The position numbers and the translations under genes are program-made. Positions 3,481 to 14,369 of a DNA stretch of 32,476 nucleotides are shown in pieces (the stretch's first letter is position 1; every line of letters begins with the position of its first letter). Source of the stretch: Acidimicrobiia bacterium (GTDB lineage: Bacteria > Actinomycetota > Acidimicrobiia > Acidimicrobiales > AC-14); the NCBI GenBank assembly GCA_023265025.1, contig JAHFUP010000061.1, positions 1-32,476 of the forward strand, written 5' to 3'. The notes under the pieces were generated by a model. It did no database searches. It had not been told where the DNA came from and was given only the letters and a program-made list of their open reading frames with translations.

Positions 3481-3744
3481 GAGACCGGGGCGAGCAAGGG
3501 GATCGGAGCTCTACGGCGGGCCGGGGAGCCCTCCACCGTGCTCGAGACGTCAGGGGACGACGAAGGACCGGCGGCCCACACGAGCCCAGGTGGTCAGGAA
3601 ATCCCGGCCGTGACGCGCGTCCTCTAGCCGTCTACCCCCGGAATCTCCAGAAACAGTCAAGAGACGGACATATTGCGCCGACAGGTAGGACATGCGGCGC
3701 CTCGGCGGAGCCTCCACGGGCGTTATGGGTCGGAGCGACCGGCG

Positions 3745-6700
3745 ATGGTGAAGACCGGCGCCTTGGTCCTCCCCGCGGGCGGCACCCTGCCGGTGGACGT
3801 CTGGCGGGCGCGACATCGCGGGATCGTGAGCCTGCTGTGGTGTCACGTTCCGGCCCTTTTTCTCTTCGCGGTGGTCCGCGGCAACAGCTGGTGGCACGGG
3901 CTCTTCGAAGTCGCTGGCATCGCCGTGCTGGCCACGCTGGCCGGCAGCGGCAGGATCTCTCGCCGGCAGAGCACCGTCTTCGCCTCCCTCGGCCTCATGC
4001 TGTCCTCCGCCGTCCTCGTCCACCTGTCCGGTGGGGTCATCGAGGCCCACTTCCACTTTTTCGTCATGGTCGGCGTCGTCGTCCTCTACCAGGACTGGGT
4101 CCCGTTCCTGATCGCCATCGCCTTCGTCGTCCTCCACCACGGGGTCATGGGGGTGCTCTCCCCCCACGACGTATACAACCACAAGGACGCGTGGGAGCAC
4201 CCCTGGACGTGGGCCGGCATCCACGGGGTCTCGATCCTGGCCATGAGCGTGGCGGGCATCGCCAACTGGAAGCTCAACGAACGATCGCAGTCCCAGCTCT
4301 CCTCCCTGGCCGCCATCGTCGAATCCTCCAGCGACGCCATCTACAGCTGGAGCATCGACGGCACCATTAACAGCTGGAACGTCGGGGCCGTCGAGCTCTA
4401 CGGCTACACCAGGGAAGAGGTCATCGGTCGGCCCTTCAGCGTCCTCATCCCGCCGGATCGGGCCGAGGAGTCGACGAGCCAGCTCGACCAGGTGCGCCGC
4501 GGCGCTCGAGCCGAAGCCTTCGACACAGAGCGGGTGCGTAAGGACGGCGGCCGGGTTCAGGTCTCGGTGACGGTCTCCCCCGTCCGCAGCCCGGGTGGTG
4601 AGGTCATCGGCGGGGCCACCATCGCCCACGACGTCACCGAGCGGCGCGGGATCGAGGAGGCCCTGCGGGCCGGCGAGGAGCGGACCCGCCGGATCATCGA
4701 CACGGCCCGGGCCGCCTTCGTGGGCATGGACAGCGCCGGACTGATCACCGACTGGAACCAGACCGCCGAGGCGACGTTCGGGTGGTCGGCCGATGAGGTC
4801 CTCGGGCGCCCGCTGGCCGAGACCATCGTCCCGGCCCGGTACCGGATCGGCGAGAGCACCGCTCACCCGTATCTGCTCACAGCGGAGGCTCCGGTGCTCG
4901 ACGGGCGGGTCGAGATCAGCGGTTTGCATCGCGACGGGCACGAGTTCCCGATCGAGGTGGCGATGTGGCCGGTGGGCACCGGTACCACGCAGCACTTCAG
5001 CGCCTTCATCCAGGACATCAGCGAGCGCAAGCGGGACGAGGAGGCGCAGCAGCGCACGCTCTCCCTGCTGGGCGCCACCCTCGAGTCCACCGCCAACGGG
5101 ATCCTCGTGGTCGACAGCAACGGGGGGATCTCGAGCTTCAACGGCCGGTTCGCCGAGATGTGGCAAATTCCCGAGTCGATCCTGGAGGCCCGCGACGACG
5201 GCGCCGCCCTGGGCTTCGTGATCGGTCAGCTCCAGGATCCTGACGCCTTCATCGCCAAGGTCAACGAGCTCTACGGGCAGCCCGACGCCGAGAGCCACGA
5301 CATCCTGCACTTCAAGGACGGCAGGGAGTTCGAACGGTCGTCGAAGCCACTGCGGGTGGGCGGGGCGGTCGCCGGCCGTGTGTGGAGCTTCCACGACGTG
5401 ACCGAGCGCAAGCGCCTCGAAGCGGAGCTGGCCGAGGCCCGGGACAAGGCCGTCGAGTCGTCGCGGCTCAAGTCGGAGTTCCTGGCCACCATGAGCCACG
5501 AGATCCGCACGCCGATGAACGGTGTCATCGGTTTGACCGGGCTGTTGCTCGGGACCGGGCTGACCAAGACCCAGCTCCAATACGCCGACGGGGTGCGGGC
5601 CTCGGGCGAGGCCCTCCTCGGCATCATCAACGACATCCTCGACTTCTCGAAGATCGAGGCCGGCAAGCTGGAGCTGGAGGTGGTGGACTTCGACCTGGCC
5701 GAGGCCATAGTCGAGGTGGCCAACCTGGTGGCCGAGCCGGCCCGGGCCAAGGGGCTCGAGCTGGTGGCCGTCTGCCTCCCCGACCTGCCCACCATGGTGC
5801 GGGGCGACGTCGGCCGGCTGCGCCAGATCCTGCTCAACCTCGTGTCGAACGCGGTCAAGTTCACCCCGGTGGGCGAGGTGGTGCTGCGGGCCAGCCTGGC
5901 CGCCCCACTGGACCCGGGGCCGGTGATGGTCCGCCTCGAGGTGGCGGACTCCGGCATCGGTATCGCCCCCGAGACGGCCGACCGGCTCTTCGAGCCCTTC
6001 TCACAGGCCGACGCGTCGACCACCCGCCGCTACGGCGGGACCGGCCTCGGCCTGGCCATCTGCCGCCGGTTGGCCGAGGCCATGGGCGGCACCATCGGCC
6101 TCGAAAGCCGGCTCGGCGAAGGGAGCACGTTTTGGCTCAACGTGCCGCTGGCCCGGGCCATCGATCCGATACGGTCGCCGGAGCTGCGGGAGCACCCCCT
6201 CGAGGGCCTGCGGGTGCTGGTCGTCGACGACAACCAGACCAACCGCCTGGTGCTGGCGACCCAGCTCCTGGCCTGGAGCATCGCCGCCGACCTGGCGCCC
6301 GACGCCTACATCGGCCTCGAGTACCTCGCGGAGGCGGCCACGTCGTCCCACCCCTACGACCTGGCCATCGTGGACATGAGCATGCCGGGCATGGACGGTC
6401 TCGAGCTCGGGCGCATCGTCAAGTCCGACCCGGCCCTGGCGTCGCTCCGCCTGGTGCTGCTGAGTTCCGTCAACGTCGAGGCGGAGGAGGCGGCCGGCGC
6501 CGGCTACTCGGTGCGCCTGACCAAGCCGGCCCGGCCCTCCCAGCTCTACGACGCCCTGGTCCGGGCCGTCGGGCCGCGCGAGGAGGCGCCACCGGGCGTG
6601 CGCGTGTCACCGGCCAACGTCGCCCTCTCCGACACTCGGCTGCTTATCGTGGAGGACAACGCCATCAACCAAGTGGTGGCCAAGGGCCTGGTGGCAAAGC

Positions 6701-7401
6701 TGGGCTACCGGTGCGACGTGGCCGGCAACGGCCTGGAGGCGCTGGCCGCCCTGGAGCGCCAGCACTACGACGCCGTGCTCATGGACTGCCAGATGCCGGA
6801 GATGGACGGCCTCGAGGCCACGGTGGAGATTCGTCGGCGGGAGGCGGGGACGTCGGGCATCCCGATCATCGCCATGACGGCCGGCGCGCTGGTCGAGGAT
6901 CGCGACAAGTGCCTGGCCGCCGGCATGGACGACTACATCGCCAAACCGGTGACGGGCACGGAGCTCGACCGGATCCTGCGGCGCTGGCTCTCCACCCCCG
7001 GGGTCAACGGCACCGCGACAGAGGCGCCGTCCGCGGCGGACGACCACGGCGGCGGCGAACAGGCGCCGATCGAGCCCGCCCGGCTGGAGGAGCTCGGGGA
7101 GCTCGACCCCGACGGATCGGCGGGGCTGGTGGCGTCGCTGTTCACGGACTTCCTTGCCCAGGCCGCCGGCGACCTCGCCTCGCTGGCGTCCGCCATCGAG
7201 ACCGGTGACGGCACGGCCCTGGGGCGGGCGGCCCACGGTCTCCACGACGCCGCCGGCAAAGTGGGTGCGACGGACGTGGCCCGCGTTTGCATCGAGCTGG
7301 AGGTGGCGGCGCGGTCTTCCCGCCTCGAGGATGCTCCTGGGCTTTTCCGCCGATTGGAGCGGAAGCTGGCCCAGGTGCGACAGGGCGTCGCCGGCACCTG
7401 A
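3745..7401 (+). CDS. membrane hybrid histidine kinase, PAS x3-HisKA-HATPase-REC x2-Hpt
   Basis: A 1218-residue multistep phosphorelay kinase. Residues about 28-174 are hydrophobic membrane helices with HLSGGVIEAHFHFFVMVGVV and LYQDWVPFLIAIAFVVLHHG, a MASE-like integral sensor. PAS domains follow at about 186-300, 312-430 and 439-558. HisKA has the phospho-acceptor His585 in MSHEIRTPMNG, and HATPase_c spans about 682-806 (NLVSNAVKFTP, ADSGIGI, GGTGLGLAI). REC1 has Asp877 (IVDMSMPGMDG) and REC2 Asp1014 (LMDCQMPEMDG). A C-terminal Hpt has His1164 in AHGLHDAAGKVGA; the usual H-x-LKG is here H-x-LHD. ATG 3745 is chosen over the in-frame TTG at 3673 because a GGAG lies about 11 bases upstream and the extra 24 residues look unnatural. 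No response regulator or partner gene is adjacent, so the output is unknown; this is an orphan kinase flanked by mobile debris. Confidence 0.93.
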   Translation: MVKTGALVLPAGGTLPVDVWRARHRGIVSLLWCHVPALFLFAVVRGNSWWHGLFEVAGIAVLATLAGSGRISRRQSTVFASLGLMLSSAVLVHLSGGVIEAHFHFFVMVGVVVLYQDWVPFLIAIAFVVLHHGVMGVLSPHDVYNHKDAWEHPWTWAGIHGVSILAMSVAGIANWKLNERSQSQLSSLAAIVESSSDAIYSWSIDGTINSWNVGAVELYGYTREEVIGRPFSVLIPPDRAEESTSQLDQVRRGARAEAFDTERVRKDGGRVQVSVTVSPVRSPGGEVIGGATIAHDVTERRGIEEALRAGEERTRRIIDTARAAFVGMDSAGLITDWNQTAEATFGWSADEVLGRPLAETIVPARYRIGESTAHPYLLTAEAPVLDGRVEISGLHRDGHEFPIEVAMWPVGTGTTQHFSAFIQDISERKRDEEAQQRTLSLLGATLESTANGILVVDSNGGISSFNGRFAEMWQIPESILEARDDGAALGFVIGQLQDPDAFIAKVNELYGQPDAESHDILHFKDGREFERSSKPLRVGGAVAGRVWSFHDVTERKRLEAELAEARDKAVESSRLKSEFLATMSHEIRTPMNGVIGLTGLLLGTGLTKTQLQYADGVRASGEALLGIINDILDFSKIEAGKLELEVVDFDLAEAIVEVANLVAEPARAKGLELVAVCLPDLPTMVRGDVGRLRQILLNLVSNAVKFTPVGEVVLRASLAAPLDPGPVMVRLEVADSGIGIAPETADRLFEPFSQADASTTRRYGGTGLGLAICRRLAEAMGGTIGLESRLGEGSTFWLNVPLARAIDPIRSPELREHPLEGLRVLVVDDNQTNRLVLATQLLAWSIAADLAPDAYIGLEYLAEAATSSHPYDLAIVDMSMPGMDGLELGRIVKSDPALASLRLVLLSSVNVEAEEAAGAGYSVRLTKPARPSQLYDALVRAVGPREEAPPGVRVSPANVALSDTRLLIVEDNAINQVVAKGLVAKLGYRCDVAGNGLEALAALERQHYDAVLMDCQMPEMDGLEATVEIRRREAGTSGIPIIAMTAGALVEDRDKCLAAGMDDYIAKPVTGTELDRILRRWLSTPGVNGTATEAPSAADDHGGGEQAPIEPARLEELGELDPDGSAGLVASLFTDFLAQAAGDLASLASAIETGDGTALGRAAHGLHDAAGKVGATDVARVCIELEVAARSSRLEDAPGLFRRLERKLAQVRQGVAGT

Positions 7402-11522: not shown

Positions 11523-13340
11523 ATGGCTGGTCCGAAGAGCACGCTGAAGGACGACGAACTGGCGACGCTCCGGGCTCGATCGAAGGTGGTGTCGCCGGAG
11601 GAGATCGCCGATCGCGTGATCCAACGCGACGGCCGGACCGTCTTCCGTGCCGTGCGCCGGACGACCCGTGCCGCGGCCGGCGCGCTCGACGTCCAGGAGG
11701 GCGCCACGCCGGCCGCCGATGAGTACGAGGTGGTCGAGATCACGCTGATCAGCGCCGCCGACTTCGACTACACCCCGAAGATCACCGGCGCCGACAAGAA
11801 GGCCGCCCAGCCGATCGACGCCAAGCTCGACCGGCTGAAGGGCTACTACGCCTACGACCCCGGGCTCTCGGCCACCAGGTCCGCCCCCGCCGGCGAGGGC
11901 GACACCGAGGTGCCGGCCGTGGTCGACCACCGACCGCTCCAGTCGCCGGTCAAGGATCAGGCTGGCCGAGGCACCTGCGTCTCGCACGCCTCGATGGGCC
12001 TGCTGGAGGCGTTCGGGCACATCGACGACAATCTCTCCGAGCAGTACACCCACTACAAGTTCAACCAGTTCCTCAACCGTCCGCACAACGAAGACGCCGG
12101 GCTGAAGACCACCGACGCGGCGCCGTTCCTCGCCCGCGCCGACGGCCGGGTGTGCCTCGAGTCGCAGTGGCCGTACATCCCCAACCAGGCCACCATCGAC
12201 GCCGCGGTGGCCGCCGGCGCCTACGCGCCGCCGGCGGCGGCCGTCCAGCACCAGGCGTTCGGCGTCGGCGCCTACAAGATCATCGGCGACAACGGCCTCA
12301 CCGGCGAGAGCATCAAGAACACCCGGTACCTGGAGGCCCTTCTCTACCAGGGCTACAACATCGTGCTGGGTTGCTGGGCGTCATGGGACGACAAGGACAA
12401 CGACGGGGTCCTCACGCCCCTGCTGAACAGCAACGGCACGCCGGCCGGCACCGGCGGGCACGCCATGGTCATCGTCGGCTACGACCGCGACAAGCAGTAC
12501 TTCATCCTGAAGAACAGCTGGCAGCCGACGTGGGGCCACAACGGCTACGGCTACTTCCACTACGACTTCATCCGGGCCTGCGCCAAGTACGGCTTCGTGG
12601 TCGACAGCGTGGTTCCCGCCGCCCCTGCCGCGGGCGCGCCGGCCAAGCTGGTGAACTCGCCCTACAGCGCCACGAGGATCAGCCGGGCCGACCTCCGGGC
12701 CGCCATCGTCTTCTTCAAGACGTCCTCGGGCCGGTACGCGGTGGCCGAGGCCTACGCCGGCGACAACCTGCTGCTGCGCAACCTGCGGGTGTACAACGCC
12801 AACGGCACCGTCCACCTGACCCGCGACAGCCTGGTCGTGCGCAGCTCGTTCCTATGCGACCTCGACACCGGCGCCGAGACGTCCACCAACGCCGACTTCT
12901 GGTGGCACGGCGTGAGCCCCGGCGTGCATTTCCTGGAGCCCCGCAACGGCGCCGGCGCCTGGCTGGCGTACAACCTGGCCGCGCTCACCGGGCCCCAGAT
13001 CGCAGCCATGAGCCTCTCGACCGCCGCGGTCGACTGGGGCCAGTTGCGCTACGCGGTCGTCGTCGGCAAGACCAACGCCGGCCGGCCGTTCAAGATCCTG
13101 GCCCACGCCAAGTCCGGCAACGTGCTCCAACTCTCCTACATCGAGGTCTTCGACCCGAGCGGGGCCCGGTTCAAGTACGGGGAGTCCGTCAACGTCCCGT
13201 CGTCGTTCACCTACAACCTCGACAGCCTGGCCCAGGGTGGTGGCAGCTCGGCCGACATCTGGTGGAACGTCGTGTCGAACGGCGTCGGTTTCCTGCGGCC
13301 GAACGGCACCGCCAGGATCCGCTACGTGTGGTCGTTGTAG
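11523..13340 (+). CDS. papain-like C1 cysteine peptidase with two C-terminal repeats
   Basis: A 605-residue protein with a papain-fold domain at about 130-365. The catalytic residues are all present: oxyanion Gln146 and nucleophile Cys152 (KDQAGRGTCVSHAS), His313 (GGHAMVIVGYD) and Asn331 (LKNSWQPTWGHNGYGYFHYD). The first 130 residues are Asp/Lys-rich with no signal peptide and could act as a pro-segment. After the peptidase come two related repeats of about 95 residues, near 391-487 and 508-605, aligned at LRAAIVFFKTSSGR / LRYAVVVGKTNAGR and ADFWWHGVSPGVHFLEP / ADIWWNVVSNGVGFLRP. GAGGGGG lies 4 bases upstream of the ATG, and a TAGGCT -10-like element is at 11481-11486. Lack of a signal peptide suggests a cytoplasmic or non-classical location. 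Only 7 bases separate it from the small gene downstream. Confidence 0.92.
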   Translation: MAGPKSTLKDDELATLRARSKVVSPEEIADRVIQRDGRTVFRAVRRTTRAAAGALDVQEGATPAADEYEVVEITLISAADFDYTPKITGADKKAAQPIDAKLDRLKGYYAYDPGLSATRSAPAGEGDTEVPAVVDHRPLQSPVKDQAGRGTCVSHASMGLLEAFGHIDDNLSEQYTHYKFNQFLNRPHNEDAGLKTTDAAPFLARADGRVCLESQWPYIPNQATIDAAVAAGAYAPPAAAVQHQAFGVGAYKIIGDNGLTGESIKNTRYLEALLYQGYNIVLGCWASWDDKDNDGVLTPLLNSNGTPAGTGGHAMVIVGYDRDKQYFILKNSWQPTWGHNGYGYFHYDFIRACAKYGFVVDSVVPAAPAAGAPAKLVNSPYSATRISRADLRAAIVFFKTSSGRYAVAEAYAGDNLLLRNLRVYNANGTVHLTRDSLVVRSSFLCDLDTGAETSTNADFWWHGVSPGVHFLEPRNGAGAWLAYNLAALTGPQIAAMSLSTAAVDWGQLRYAVVVGKTNAGRPFKILAHAKSGNVLQLSYIEVFDPSGARFKYGESVNVPSSFTYNLDSLAQGGGSSADIWWNVVSNGVGFLRPNGTARIRYVWSL

Positions 13341-13347
13341 CGCCGGC

Positions 13348-13656
13348 ATGCGCCGCATCCACGCCGAGCGGTCCGACGCCATCCGGCTCGCCGTGGGCGA
13401 GACGATCGAACTGGAGTCCCTGCGGCTGACCGTGGCGCCGCCCCACGTGCTCGTCGTCCCAGTGGCCGAGGAGCCAGACGTCGTCGAAATCGTGGGCCAG
13501 GAGCCCCTGGACGAGGACGGCGTGCATGTCAGCATGTACCGGCTCCGGGGCGTCAAGGTCGGGACGGGCCGTCTCCACCTCGGCTACAAGGACCTGCGCA
13601 GCGGCGAGCTGGTGGCCGAGAAGGAGATCAGGGTCCGGGTCGACCCCTCGCCGTAG
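13348..13656 (+). CDS. small beta-rich protein, possible chagasin-like peptidase inhibitor
   Basis: A 102-residue protein starting at ATG 13348, 7 bases after the C1 peptidase stop. It is predicted almost all beta: AIRLAVGETIELESLRLTV, HVLVVPVAEEPDVVEIV, VSMYRLRGVKVGTGRLHLGY and VAEKEIRVRV. The order of strands, the GVKVGTGRLHLGYKD segment and the final alternating strand recall the immunoglobulin-like chagasin fold (MEROPS I42), whose members inhibit papain-family peptidases. The hallmark NPTTGY loop of chagasin is not visible, so this rests on fold-like pattern and on location. No signal peptide. Other readings: an Ig-like accessory domain or a chaperone for the peptidase. The gene is surely real; the function is inferred. 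Confidence 0.8.
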   Translation: MRRIHAERSDAIRLAVGETIELESLRLTVAPPHVLVVPVAEEPDVVEIVGQEPLDEDGVHVSMYRLRGVKVGTGRLHLGYKDLRSGELVAEKEIRVRVDPSP

Positions 13657-13681: not shown

Positions 13682-13707
13682 TGCTAGCATTGAGAGCAGG
13701 AGGACGT
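13682..13707 (+). promoter_or_regulatory. promoter and probable operator of the toxin-antitoxin pair
   Basis: A perfect 8-base palindrome TGCTAGCA at 13682-13689 overlaps a -10-like TAGCAT at 13685-13690. AGGAGG at 13698-13703 is a strong ribosome binding site 4 bases before the ATG. Ribbon-helix-helix antitoxins repress their own operons through short palindromes at the -10, so this is a plausible operator (inference). Confidence 0.5.
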
Positions 13708-13953
13708 ATGGCTGCGTTCAGCATCCGGAACATCGACGAGGACGTCAAGGAGCGGCTGCGTCTGAGGGCGGCGACGAACGGGCGCTCCGTTGAGGCGGAG
13801 ATCCGCGCCATCCTGGTCGAGGCGGTCACCCCGTCGCTCCCGTCGGCGGGATTGTTCGGGACGCTCCTCGAACGCTTCGGCGAGCTCGGCGGCACCGAGC
13901 TGGACCTGCCACCGCGGGTGGCGGTTCCCCGTAGTTCGGCCCTCACCGAGTGA
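13708..13953 (+). CDS. FitA-type ribbon-helix-helix antitoxin
   Basis: An 81-residue protein. The N-terminal FSIRNIDEDVKERLRLRAA, followed by NGRSVEAEIRAILVEAV, is the strand-helix-helix of FitA/Arc-type antitoxins (plasmid-stability family); residues about 2-8 would form the DNA-contacting strand in a dimer. The C-terminal 30 residues (GLFGTLLERFGELGGTELDL) resemble the toxin-wrapping peptide of FitA. ATG 13708 follows a near-perfect AGGAGG. The stop overlaps the toxin start by 4 bases (GTGA), so the two are co-translated with the antitoxin first. It should neutralise the PIN RNase encoded next and repress the operon as a complex. Confidence 0.9.
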   Translation: MAAFSIRNIDEDVKERLRLRAATNGRSVEAEIRAILVEAVTPSLPSAGLFGTLLERFGELGGTELDLPPRVAVPRSSALTE

Positions 13954-14369
13954 TCGTCGTCGACACGAATGTGACCTCGGAACTGATGCGACCGGCGCCG
14001 GATGCCGGCGTCCGGGACTGGGTCCTGGCCGCGAGACCGGCCGACCTCTTCACGACCGCCATCACGCTCGCCGAGATCCGCTACGGAATCGAGCGGTTGG
14101 CCGCGGGCCAGCGCCGAGACGTGCTCCGGGACACCGCCGAGGAGATCTTCTCGGCGTTCGAGGCACGCGTGCTCCCGTTCGACGCGGACTCGGCCGGCCG
14201 GTACGCGGTCATCGTCGACCGCCGGGAGCGGTCGGGCCGTCCGATCAACGGGTACGACGCCCAGATCGCCTCGATCTGCCAGGTCCACGGCGCCACGCTG
14301 GCCACCCGCAACACCCGGGACTTCGAGGGCACCGGGGTCGAGCTGGTCGACCCGTGGGGGTCCGGATAG
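13950..14369 (+). CDS. FitB/VapC-type PIN-domain RNase toxin
   Basis: A 139-residue PIN-domain protein with the full acidic set: Asp5 (VVDTNVTSELMR), Glu42 (TLAEIRYGIERL) and Asp103 (NGYDAQIASICQ), plus Asp near NTRDFEG. The closing FEGTGVELVDPW is standard for FitB-type toxins. The reaction is Mg-dependent cleavage of RNA when released from the antitoxin. Start GTG 13950 overlaps the antitoxin stop. All catalytic residues are intact, unlike the truncated PIN remnant at 8216-8485, so this module is probably active. The RNA target cannot be read from sequence. Confidence 0.93.
   Translation: MIVVDTNVTSELMRPAPDAGVRDWVLAARPADLFTTAITLAEIRYGIERLAAGQRRDVLRDTAEEIFSAFEARVLPFDADSAGRYAVIVDRRERSGRPINGYDAQIASICQVHGATLATRNTRDFEGTGVELVDPWGSG

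What the first reader, a model, noticed from the sequence alone, without database searches (positions are those of the whole stretch)
11523..13656. Papain-like peptidase followed by a candidate inhibitor or partner
A C1 peptidase with full Gln-Cys-His-Asn set, no signal peptide, is followed after 7 bases by a 102-residue all-beta protein whose strand order and GVKVGTGRLHLGYKD segment recall chagasin (I42). A cytoplasmic peptidase needs control, and peptidase-inhibitor gene pairs are known (for example staphopain-staphostatin). The NPTTGY loop is absent, so it may be a new inhibitor type.
Basis: inference. Interest (0 to 1): 0.68.

Follow-up and report, generated by a model that had tools for sequence, protein, structure and literature searches.

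The report
Leaderless papain-like peptidase with chagasin-fold partner
Two neighbouring genes encode an intracellular protein-cutting enzyme and a small protein predicted to have the shape of known blockers of such enzymes, and the pair is found together in very distant bacteria and an archaeon, so it is probably an enzyme-and-brake kit of a kind seen before but with a new-looking brake.

Summary
Window 11523-13340 encodes a 605-aa C1 peptidase (Q146, C152, H313, N331; no leader); 13348-13656 encodes a 102-aa protein. The pair is conserved: of six genomes found with this peptidase (this one, Anaerolineae, Desulfobulbaceae, Methylococcaceae, Halogeometricum limi, Poribacteria), five have the small gene directly downstream (gaps 7-12 nt, or ATGA overlap); Poribacteria lacks it. 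The small protein is modelled confidently (pLDDT 90.9); all 10 PDB chains with Foldseek E<=0.001 are chagasin-type inhibitors. Profile comparison with eight I42 domains gives probability 80.6 over 91 columns (13 decoys <=0.24), though two earlier versions were weaker. Pfam I42 misses all five partners, and NPTTG, GxGG and RPW are absent; LDEDG and G[FY][RK]D are invariant instead. Best reading: a diverged chagasin-fold inhibitor, co-encoded to hold a cytoplasmic peptidase in check. Binding and inhibition are untested. Peptidase-inhibitor pairs are known, and two other C1/I42 gene arrangements turned up here, so this is a new variant of a known kind. The peptidase's C-terminal two-repeat domain had no convincing match in the PDB or BFVD searches.

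The parts
11523..13340 (+). Leaderless C1 peptidase, 605 aa: conserved N-terminal region (about 1-125, possible prosegment, inference), papain-like catalytic domain (131-351), C-terminal two-repeat beta domain (376-605)
   Evidence: Pfam PF00112 E 8.2e-11; best PDB sequence hit 3ois, cysteine protease, E 4.1e-13; four full-length relatives 50-68% identical
11958..11978 (+). QAGRGTC: glutamine Q146 (oxyanion hole by homology) to catalytic cysteine C152
   Evidence: Q and C invariant in 5 of 5 full-length sequences; roles recalled from papain
12459..12461 (+). Catalytic histidine H313
   Evidence: invariant in 5 of 5
12513..12515 (+). Catalytic asparagine N331
   Evidence: invariant in 5 of 5
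12648..13337 (+). C-terminal two-repeat beta domain (each repeat with an A-D-[FIL]-W-W core)
   Evidence: AlphaFold2 pLDDT 93.8; no Foldseek match with E<=0.001 in PDB or BFVD; best VIA Z 5.8 over 64 residues, an Sm protein
13348..13656 (+). 102-aa chagasin-fold partner, candidate inhibitor of the peptidase
   Evidence: AlphaFold2 pLDDT 90.9; Foldseek top ten all chagasin-type; profile comparison with I42; adjacent in 5 of 6 genomes
13507..13521 (+). LDEDG (residues 54-58), tip of the hairpin at the place of chagasin loop L4
   Evidence: 5 of 5 partners; place by model secondary structure and profile alignment
13582..13593 (+). G[FY][RK]D (residues 79-82), at the place of the chagasin RPW loop L6
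   Evidence: 5 of 5 partners; place by profile alignment

Best explanation
The two genes form a peptidase-inhibitor operon. The peptidase is made without a leader and stays in the cytoplasm. The small protein, translated just after it and probably coupled to it, folds like chagasin and is a dedicated inhibitor: three loops at one end of the beta sandwich (residues about 24-35, 52-62 and 82-88) enter the cleft around Cys152 and block substrate, reversibly, so that the cell is spared until the inhibitor is outcompeted, removed or degraded. Shown here: the genes, their adjacency across distant lineages, the catalytic residues, the predicted chagasin fold and a distant sequence relation to I42. 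Inferred: co-transcription, binding, inhibition, which loops bind, and the release signal.
For: Adjacency in 5 of the 6 genomes found with this peptidase, with gaps of 7, 7, 12 and 7 nt or an ATGA overlap, and one copy per genome. Pairwise identities of peptidases and partners run in parallel (r 0.94 over 10 non-independent pairs of 5 genomes). The other neighbours differ in these genomes as far as the ORF lists show by eye. Model of the partner pLDDT 90.9; Foldseek against PDB: 10 of 10 chains (seven entries) with E<=0.001 are chagasin-type inhibitors, best E 3.8e-6; VIA-align Z 10.6, 10.3, 9.9 and 9.4 for the top four, all of that type. Profile-profile comparison with eight I42 domains: probability 80.6, single-pair E 1.3e-5, 91 columns; 13 decoys score at most 11.9 against 33.5. 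Chagasin-family proteins inhibit C1 peptidases (PMC2607524, part 1 of 3 read). I42 genes or domains sit beside C1 genes without a leader in two other arrangements found here.
Against: No binding or inhibition data. All three chagasin signature motifs are missing in 5 of 5 partners, and Pfam I42 does not detect any of them even at E 10. The Poribacteria genome has the peptidase with intact catalytic residues and no partner, so the partner is not strictly needed, or the draft misses it. Invariant positions are not significantly concentrated in the three presumed wedge loops (10 of 30 against 15 of 72, Fisher p 0.14). Z for chagasin (9.4) is tied with unrelated Ig-like domains such as PADI6 (9.4). 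The first two profile comparisons, with another or a partly faulty I42 set, were weaker (probability 11.8; 39.1). The family rests on six genomes.
Confidence: 0.62

Rival explanations
1. The partner has a chagasin-type fold but is not an inhibitor: it is a chaperone, activator or substrate-recruiting subunit of the peptidase, or binds its C-terminal or N-terminal domain.
For: Loss of all three inhibitory motifs (0 of 5); Pfam I42 silent; the invariant LDEDG and G[FY][RK]D are not among the conserved loop motifs of chagasin named in PMC2607524; the peptidase family has extra domains that a subunit could bind.
Against: The fold's nearest relatives are inhibitors of C1 peptidases, and the neighbour is a C1 peptidase; the other C1 neighbours found here have a Pfam-recognisable I42. 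The Poribacteria peptidase exists without a partner.
Confidence: 0.22
2. A toxin-antitoxin-like or defence module: the peptidase is a conditional cytoplasmic toxin, the small protein its antidote, released under stress or phage attack. (This overlaps with the best explanation, as the small protein would still be an inhibitor.)
For: Scattered over six distant lineages at 50-68% identity and rare in each group sampled (own only of 396; one true match each in 242, 199, 131 and 126 genomes); tight gene spacing; an antitoxin/PIN toxin pair follows at 13690-14369. A parallel HTH / M78-I42 / C1 operon lies on plasmids typed conjugative.
Against: No PADLOC match for either protein at E 0.01; no regulator gene seen in the pair; peptidase alone in Poribacteria; in the phage, plasmid and IMG/VR searches made at most distant C1 matches appeared.
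Confidence: 0.12
3. The partner is a generic Ig-like protein with no descent from or function like I42; the likeness is that of any small beta sandwich.
For: VIA Z values of unrelated Ig domains are close (PADI6 9.4); no HMM match; phmmer against PDB best E 0.062, pertactin; first profile comparison weak.
Against: All ten Foldseek chains under E 0.001 are chagasin-type, the next hit has 2.5e-3; full-length profile match with 13 decoys negative.
Confidence: 0.1

Closest known systems
Chagasin / ICP family, MEROPS I42, Pfam PF09394 (chagasin, EhICP2, amebosin, Pseudomonas Cip1)
   Same: Size, predicted fold, distant full-length profile similarity; the neighbour is a C1 peptidase, the known kind of target (part 1 of PMC2607524, passages of PMC5014320)
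   Different: None of NPTTG, GxGG, RPW/F; no Pfam match; LDEDG and G[FY][RK]D invariant instead
I42 gene just upstream of a short C1 gene (G404, G451, same order as the window; 'xylellain-type' would be my label)
   Same: C1 peptidase without a leader paired with an I42 protein, gaps 26 and 28 nt
   Different: Inhibitor gene first; I42 above Pfam's cut-off; peptidase of 305-322 residues without the C-terminal domain
M78(ImmA/IrrE)-I42 fusion next to a C1 peptidase gene (Bradyrhizobium and Sphingobium plasmids, there after an HTH gene; G423)
   Same: I42 domain encoded next to a C1 peptidase without a leader; on plasmids typed conjugative
   Different: Inhibitor domain fused to an M78 peptidase domain; regulator gene in front on the plasmids
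Staphopain-staphostatin, SpeB-Spi, Bacteroides C10 protease-Bfi/Bti pairs
   Same: Papain-like protease gene with a small co-transcribed inhibitor gene next to it (PMC3462683, passages)
   Different: Other peptidase families (C47, C10); inhibitors of other folds (staphostatins resemble lipocalins by a title in that paper's reference list)
Bacillus subtilis IPI and the intracellular subtilisin Isp1 (I22)
   Same: An Ig-like protein proposed to inhibit an intracellular peptidase (PMC3901451, passages)
   Different: Serine peptidase; strand order differs from I42; not tested against this family here
Xylella fastidiosa cysteine protease 3ois (species and the name xylellain recalled)
   Same: Best solved sequence relative of the catalytic domain (E 4.1e-13)
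   Different: Chain of 291 residues, so no room for the C-terminal two-repeat domain

Membership tests
Peptidase family C1 (PF00112) | HMM match above the curated cut-off | tested here: met
   42.8 bits against 20.7
Peptidase family C1 (PF00112) | Gln-Cys-His-Asn catalytic set | tested here: met
   Q146, C152, H313, N331 in 5 of 5 full-length sequences
Peptidase family C1 (PF00112) | Peptidase activity | not testable with these tools
   no assay
Inhibitor family I42 (PF09394) | Chagasin-type Ig-like fold | tested here: met
   predicted model only: pLDDT 90.9, 10 of 10 Foldseek chains with E<=0.001 are chagasin-type, VIA Z 10.6 to 9.4 for the top four, background 9.4
Inhibitor family I42 (PF09394) | Pfam I42 HMM match above cut-off | tested here: not met
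   0 of 5 members at E up to 10; profile-profile comparison does link them
Inhibitor family I42 (PF09394) | NPTTG (L2), GxGG (L4) and RPW/F (L6) motifs | tested here: not met
   0 of 5 for each motif; motifs as given in PMC2607524
Inhibitor family I42 (PF09394) | Tight reversible inhibition of C1 peptidases | not testable with these tools
   no assay; no complex predicted
Staphostatins | Lipocalin-like barrel fold | tested here: inconclusive
   not among the 50 listed matches, which does not exclude it
Peptidase-inhibitor gene pair | Small gene adjacent to its peptidase in unrelated genomes | tested here: met
   5 of 6 genomes
Peptidase-inhibitor gene pair | Co-transcription and cognate inhibition | not testable with these tools
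   only spacing and order seen

The most novel reading that the evidence does not exclude
A previously undescribed family of C1-peptidase inhibitors that uses the chagasin scaffold with a wholly replaced wedge (LDEDG hairpin tip in place of GxGG, G[FY][RK]D in place of RPW, no NPTTG), matched to one mobile leaderless peptidase whose C-terminal domain has no recognised relative, and spread between bacteria and haloarchaea as a two-gene unit of conditional intracellular proteolysis.
Probability: 0.35. Interest if true: 0.68.

Novelty: new variant of a known kind. Interest (0 to 1): 0.52.

Why it matters
If the small protein inhibits its neighbour, the chagasin scaffold can block papain-like enzymes without any of the three motifs used to describe the family, so bacterial and archaeal inhibitors may be hidden from present HMMs. 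It would also be a fully cytoplasmic papain-like enzyme with its own co-encoded brake; in the bacterial pairs read about here, staphostatins and Spi are thought to stop enzymes that become active too early in the cytoplasm (PMC3462683, passages), with IPI/Isp1, a subtilisin, as a proposed intracellular case (PMC3901451, passages). It raises the question of what such a scattered cytoplasmic enzyme cuts and when it is released.

Tried and rejected
Single-sequence searches with the small protein found nothing beyond the window: Pfam and NCBIfam, PDB sequences (best E 0.062), the genus (own of 3), 396 genomes of the phylum (own only), viral contigs. Also nothing: its profile against PDB sequences (best E 0.92) and viral contigs, and the Desulfobulbaceae partner against plasmids. 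The family only appeared through the peptidase. That scan needs exact short peptides, so the six genomes are a lower bound.

Weak hits inspected and rejected by eye: G772 (L044), an ATPase-like ORF, and G1269 (L049), a nitroreductase-like ORF. G094 (L043) matches part of the C-terminal domain (E 6.7e-7) in an ORF that looks propeller-like and has no Pfam match under E 0.045; kept as a side observation.

Of 298 genomes of the order, 17 have a match to the peptidase at E 0.001; besides the own one the 18 loci of 16 genomes match over parts at 29-43% identity. I read ten of these 18 loci (L004-L013) and later L015; none of those read shows the C-terminal domain by eye, and I do not count them as members; the other seven were not read. 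In one search loci on the minus strand were first read on the wrong strand; one search repeats five of them.

The profile comparison with I42 was made three times. (eight I42 rows cut to the HMM match): probability 11.8, E 0.0025, 37 columns. (changed set: L027 and L031 left out, L006 and L045 added, flanks added, but the L037 row read in a wrong frame): 39.1, E 3.1e-4, 49 columns, 0 of 200 column shuffles as high. (L037 frame corrected): 80.6, E 1.3e-5, 91 columns; one of its eight rows, L033, is below Pfam's I42 cut-off. These E-values are for one pair, not for a database, and the choice of rows matters.

Enrichment of invariant residues in the presumed wedge loops was not significant. Foldseek and VIA searches with the C-terminal domain gave no convincing match, nor did its profile against PDB sequences (best E 0.26) or its sequence against plasmids; this does not show a new fold. 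PADLOC and PHROGs gave nothing for the small protein; the peptidase has a PHROGs match named peptidase over residues 271-351.

A prediction of the complex was considered and not run: the structure tool folds one chain and hands back no coordinates; the second job went to the C-terminal domain.

Full report
What is there. Window 11523-13340 (+) is a 605-residue ORF with a Peptidase_C1 domain at residues 131-349 (E 8.2e-11, above Pfam's cut-off). Seven bases after its TAG stop, an ORF of 102 residues starts at ATG 13348 and ends at 13656. The catalytic Gln146, Cys152, His313 and Asn331 are invariant in the five full-length sequences aligned, and no hydrophobic leader is seen at the N-terminus of these five. 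The best solved sequence relative is 3ois, a cysteine protease (E 4.1e-13).

The pair is kept together. A scan of one genome for each of 84,980 species with six short peptides of the window's peptidase gave five genomes with close relatives: Anaerolineae (68% in the best segment), Desulfobulbaceae (65%), Halogeometricum limi (51%), Poribacteria (49%) and Methylococcaceae (61%; the gene runs off its contig). The scan needs exact matches to such peptides, so more carriers may exist. A relative of the small protein lies directly downstream in Anaerolineae (gap 7 nt counted from the second of two ATGs, 4 from the first), Desulfobulbaceae (12 nt) and H. limi (ATGA overlap). A genome search with the small-protein profile found it once in each of these and once in the Methylococcaceae genome, on another contig, 7 nt after the 3' part of the peptidase gene. 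Poribacteria has none at E 0.01, nor any such frame by eye in the 0.7 kb after the peptidase. So 5 of 6 genomes with the peptidase have the partner, and 5 of 5 partners found are adjacent. The Methylococcaceae peptidase reading is interrupted by an in-frame TGA. Pairwise identities of the two proteins run in parallel over five genomes (r 0.94, ten non-independent pairs); the partner changes faster (36-48% identity to the window's, against 54-68% for the peptidases of the same four genomes, one of them over 271 residues only).

The pair is rare. Besides the query genome, no genome of 396 sampled in the phylum has the small gene by single-sequence search, and the profile of the C-terminal domain finds one partial match there, G094. 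With the profiles, the only match taken as true is the carrier itself among 242 genomes (class of H. limi; one further hit rejected), 199 (class of the Anaerolineae genome, C-terminal domain profile), 131 (order of the Methylococcaceae genome) and 126 (order of the Desulfobulbaceae genome; one further hit rejected). Rare presence at 50-68% identity across bacteria and an archaeon suggests horizontal transfer (inference). The G+C content of the stretch does not stand out in the window (0.69-0.72 per kb from 11 to 14 kb, 0.68-0.75 around it).

The small protein has a chagasin-type fold. AlphaFold2 with five sequences gives mean pLDDT 90.9 and eight strands. Foldseek against the PDB lists ten chains of seven entries with E<=0.001, and all ten are cysteine-protease inhibitors of the chagasin type: EhICP2 (best E 3.8e-6), chagasin, amebosin (EhICP2, as amoebiasin 3M86, and chagasin are placed in I42 in passages of PMC3901451; amebosin's place in I42 is recalled). 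The next hit has E 2.5e-3, and Pseudomonas ICP is rank 14. VIA-align puts EhICP2 (Z 10.6, 2.4 A over 95 residues), amebosin (9.9) and chagasin (9.4) on top, but unrelated Ig-like domains such as PADI6 reach 9.4, so the structural argument rests mainly on Foldseek. Independently, a profile comparison of the five partners with eight I42 domains, seven from the window's own and related genomes of its order and one from a plasmid, gives probability 80.6, single-pair E 1.3e-5, 91 columns; 13 decoys (the reversed I42 alignment, the two C-terminal halves and ten windows of the peptidase alignment) score at most 11.9 against 33.5. Two earlier attempts with other sets were weaker (see Tried and rejected).

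It is not a standard I42 member. Pfam's I42 model matches none of the five partners at E up to 10, and NPTTG, GxGG and RPW/F, the motifs of the three contact loops of chagasin (PMC2607524, first of three parts read), occur in 0 of 5. LDEDG and G[FY][RK]D are present in 5 of 5 and fall where the L4 and L6 loops would be by the model's strand order and the profile alignment. Invariant residues are not significantly enriched in the three loops as a whole (10 of 30 against 15 of 72). I therefore say that it probably works like an I42 inhibitor and do not file it in I42.

Precedents found on the way. In the same order as the window, G404 and G451 have an I42 gene 26 and 28 nt upstream of a short C1 gene. 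On Bradyrhizobium and Sphingobium plasmids, both typed conjugative, and in G423 a protein with an M78 (ImmA/IrrE) domain and an I42 domain is encoded directly before a C1 peptidase; on the plasmids an HTH regulator gene comes first. The five C1 proteins concerned have no hydrophobic stretch before the catalytic domain. Thus the pairing of C1 peptidases with I42-type domains was seen in three arrangements, this one included. In the literature, C10 and C47 papain-like proteases with co-transcribed inhibitors of other folds are described (PMC3462683, passages). Searches for chagasin with I42 and cysteine peptidase (6 of 6 papers listed), with operon (3 of 3), as 'chagasin-like' with bacterial papain-like inhibitors (10 of 10), with IrrE (5 of 27 listed) and with gene cluster and prokaryot (1 of 1) showed in titles and abstract starts no paper on such a gene pair; this covers only the open-access library held, and most of these papers were not opened.

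How it probably works. The leaderless enzyme would be active in the cytoplasm; a co-translated inhibitor in about equal amount would occupy its cleft, as chagasin does, and could be released by competition, dilution or degradation. The short gaps, with the small gene next to its protease gene, are those of the known pairs. That the Poribacteria peptidase stands alone shows either that the enzyme can be controlled otherwise, for example by its own N-terminal region, or that the partner is missing from the draft.

The C-terminal domain. Residues 376-605 form two similar beta repeats (pLDDT 93.8). No PDB or BFVD match reaches E 0.001; the best VIA Z is 5.8 over 64 residues to an Sm protein, below the level of common arrangements. 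It may be where substrate or partner binds (speculation).

Verdict. What is missing is any evidence of contact or inhibition.

Noticed in passing
window 12648-13337; G094:C5 (L043): C-terminal two-repeat domain of the peptidase without a convincing match in the PDB and BFVD searches; a partial relative (E 6.7e-7) occurs in a propeller-like ORF (by eye) of another genome of the phylum, sharing an A-D-I-W-W pattern.
   Followed up: partly
window 13690-14369: An antitoxin-like ribbon-helix-helix gene (FitA-like, PF22513) and a PIN-domain gene (PF01850) follow directly after the pair.
   Followed up: partly
L045, L046 (plasmids), G423:C36 (L034, L015): M78-I42 fusion gene next to a C1 peptidase gene, on two plasmids typed conjugative with an HTH gene in front, and on a chromosome contig; the M78 protein of L045 matches CapP and RmrA models in PADLOC. 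A possible regulated peptidase-inhibitor module worth its own study.
   Followed up: partly
G000:C158 (L032), L028, L029, L033: Rieske domain and I42 domain in one open frame, in the window's own genome and three relatives (two of the genus, one of the family); I42 is below Pfam's cut-off in L033.
   Followed up: partly
L041 (Methylococcaceae), peptidase frame: In-frame TGA inside the catalytic domain, where the five full-length copies are open; sequencing error, decaying gene or recoding.
   Followed up: no
window 3673-7401: Large hybrid histidine kinase with PAS, receiver and Hpt domains.
   Followed up: no
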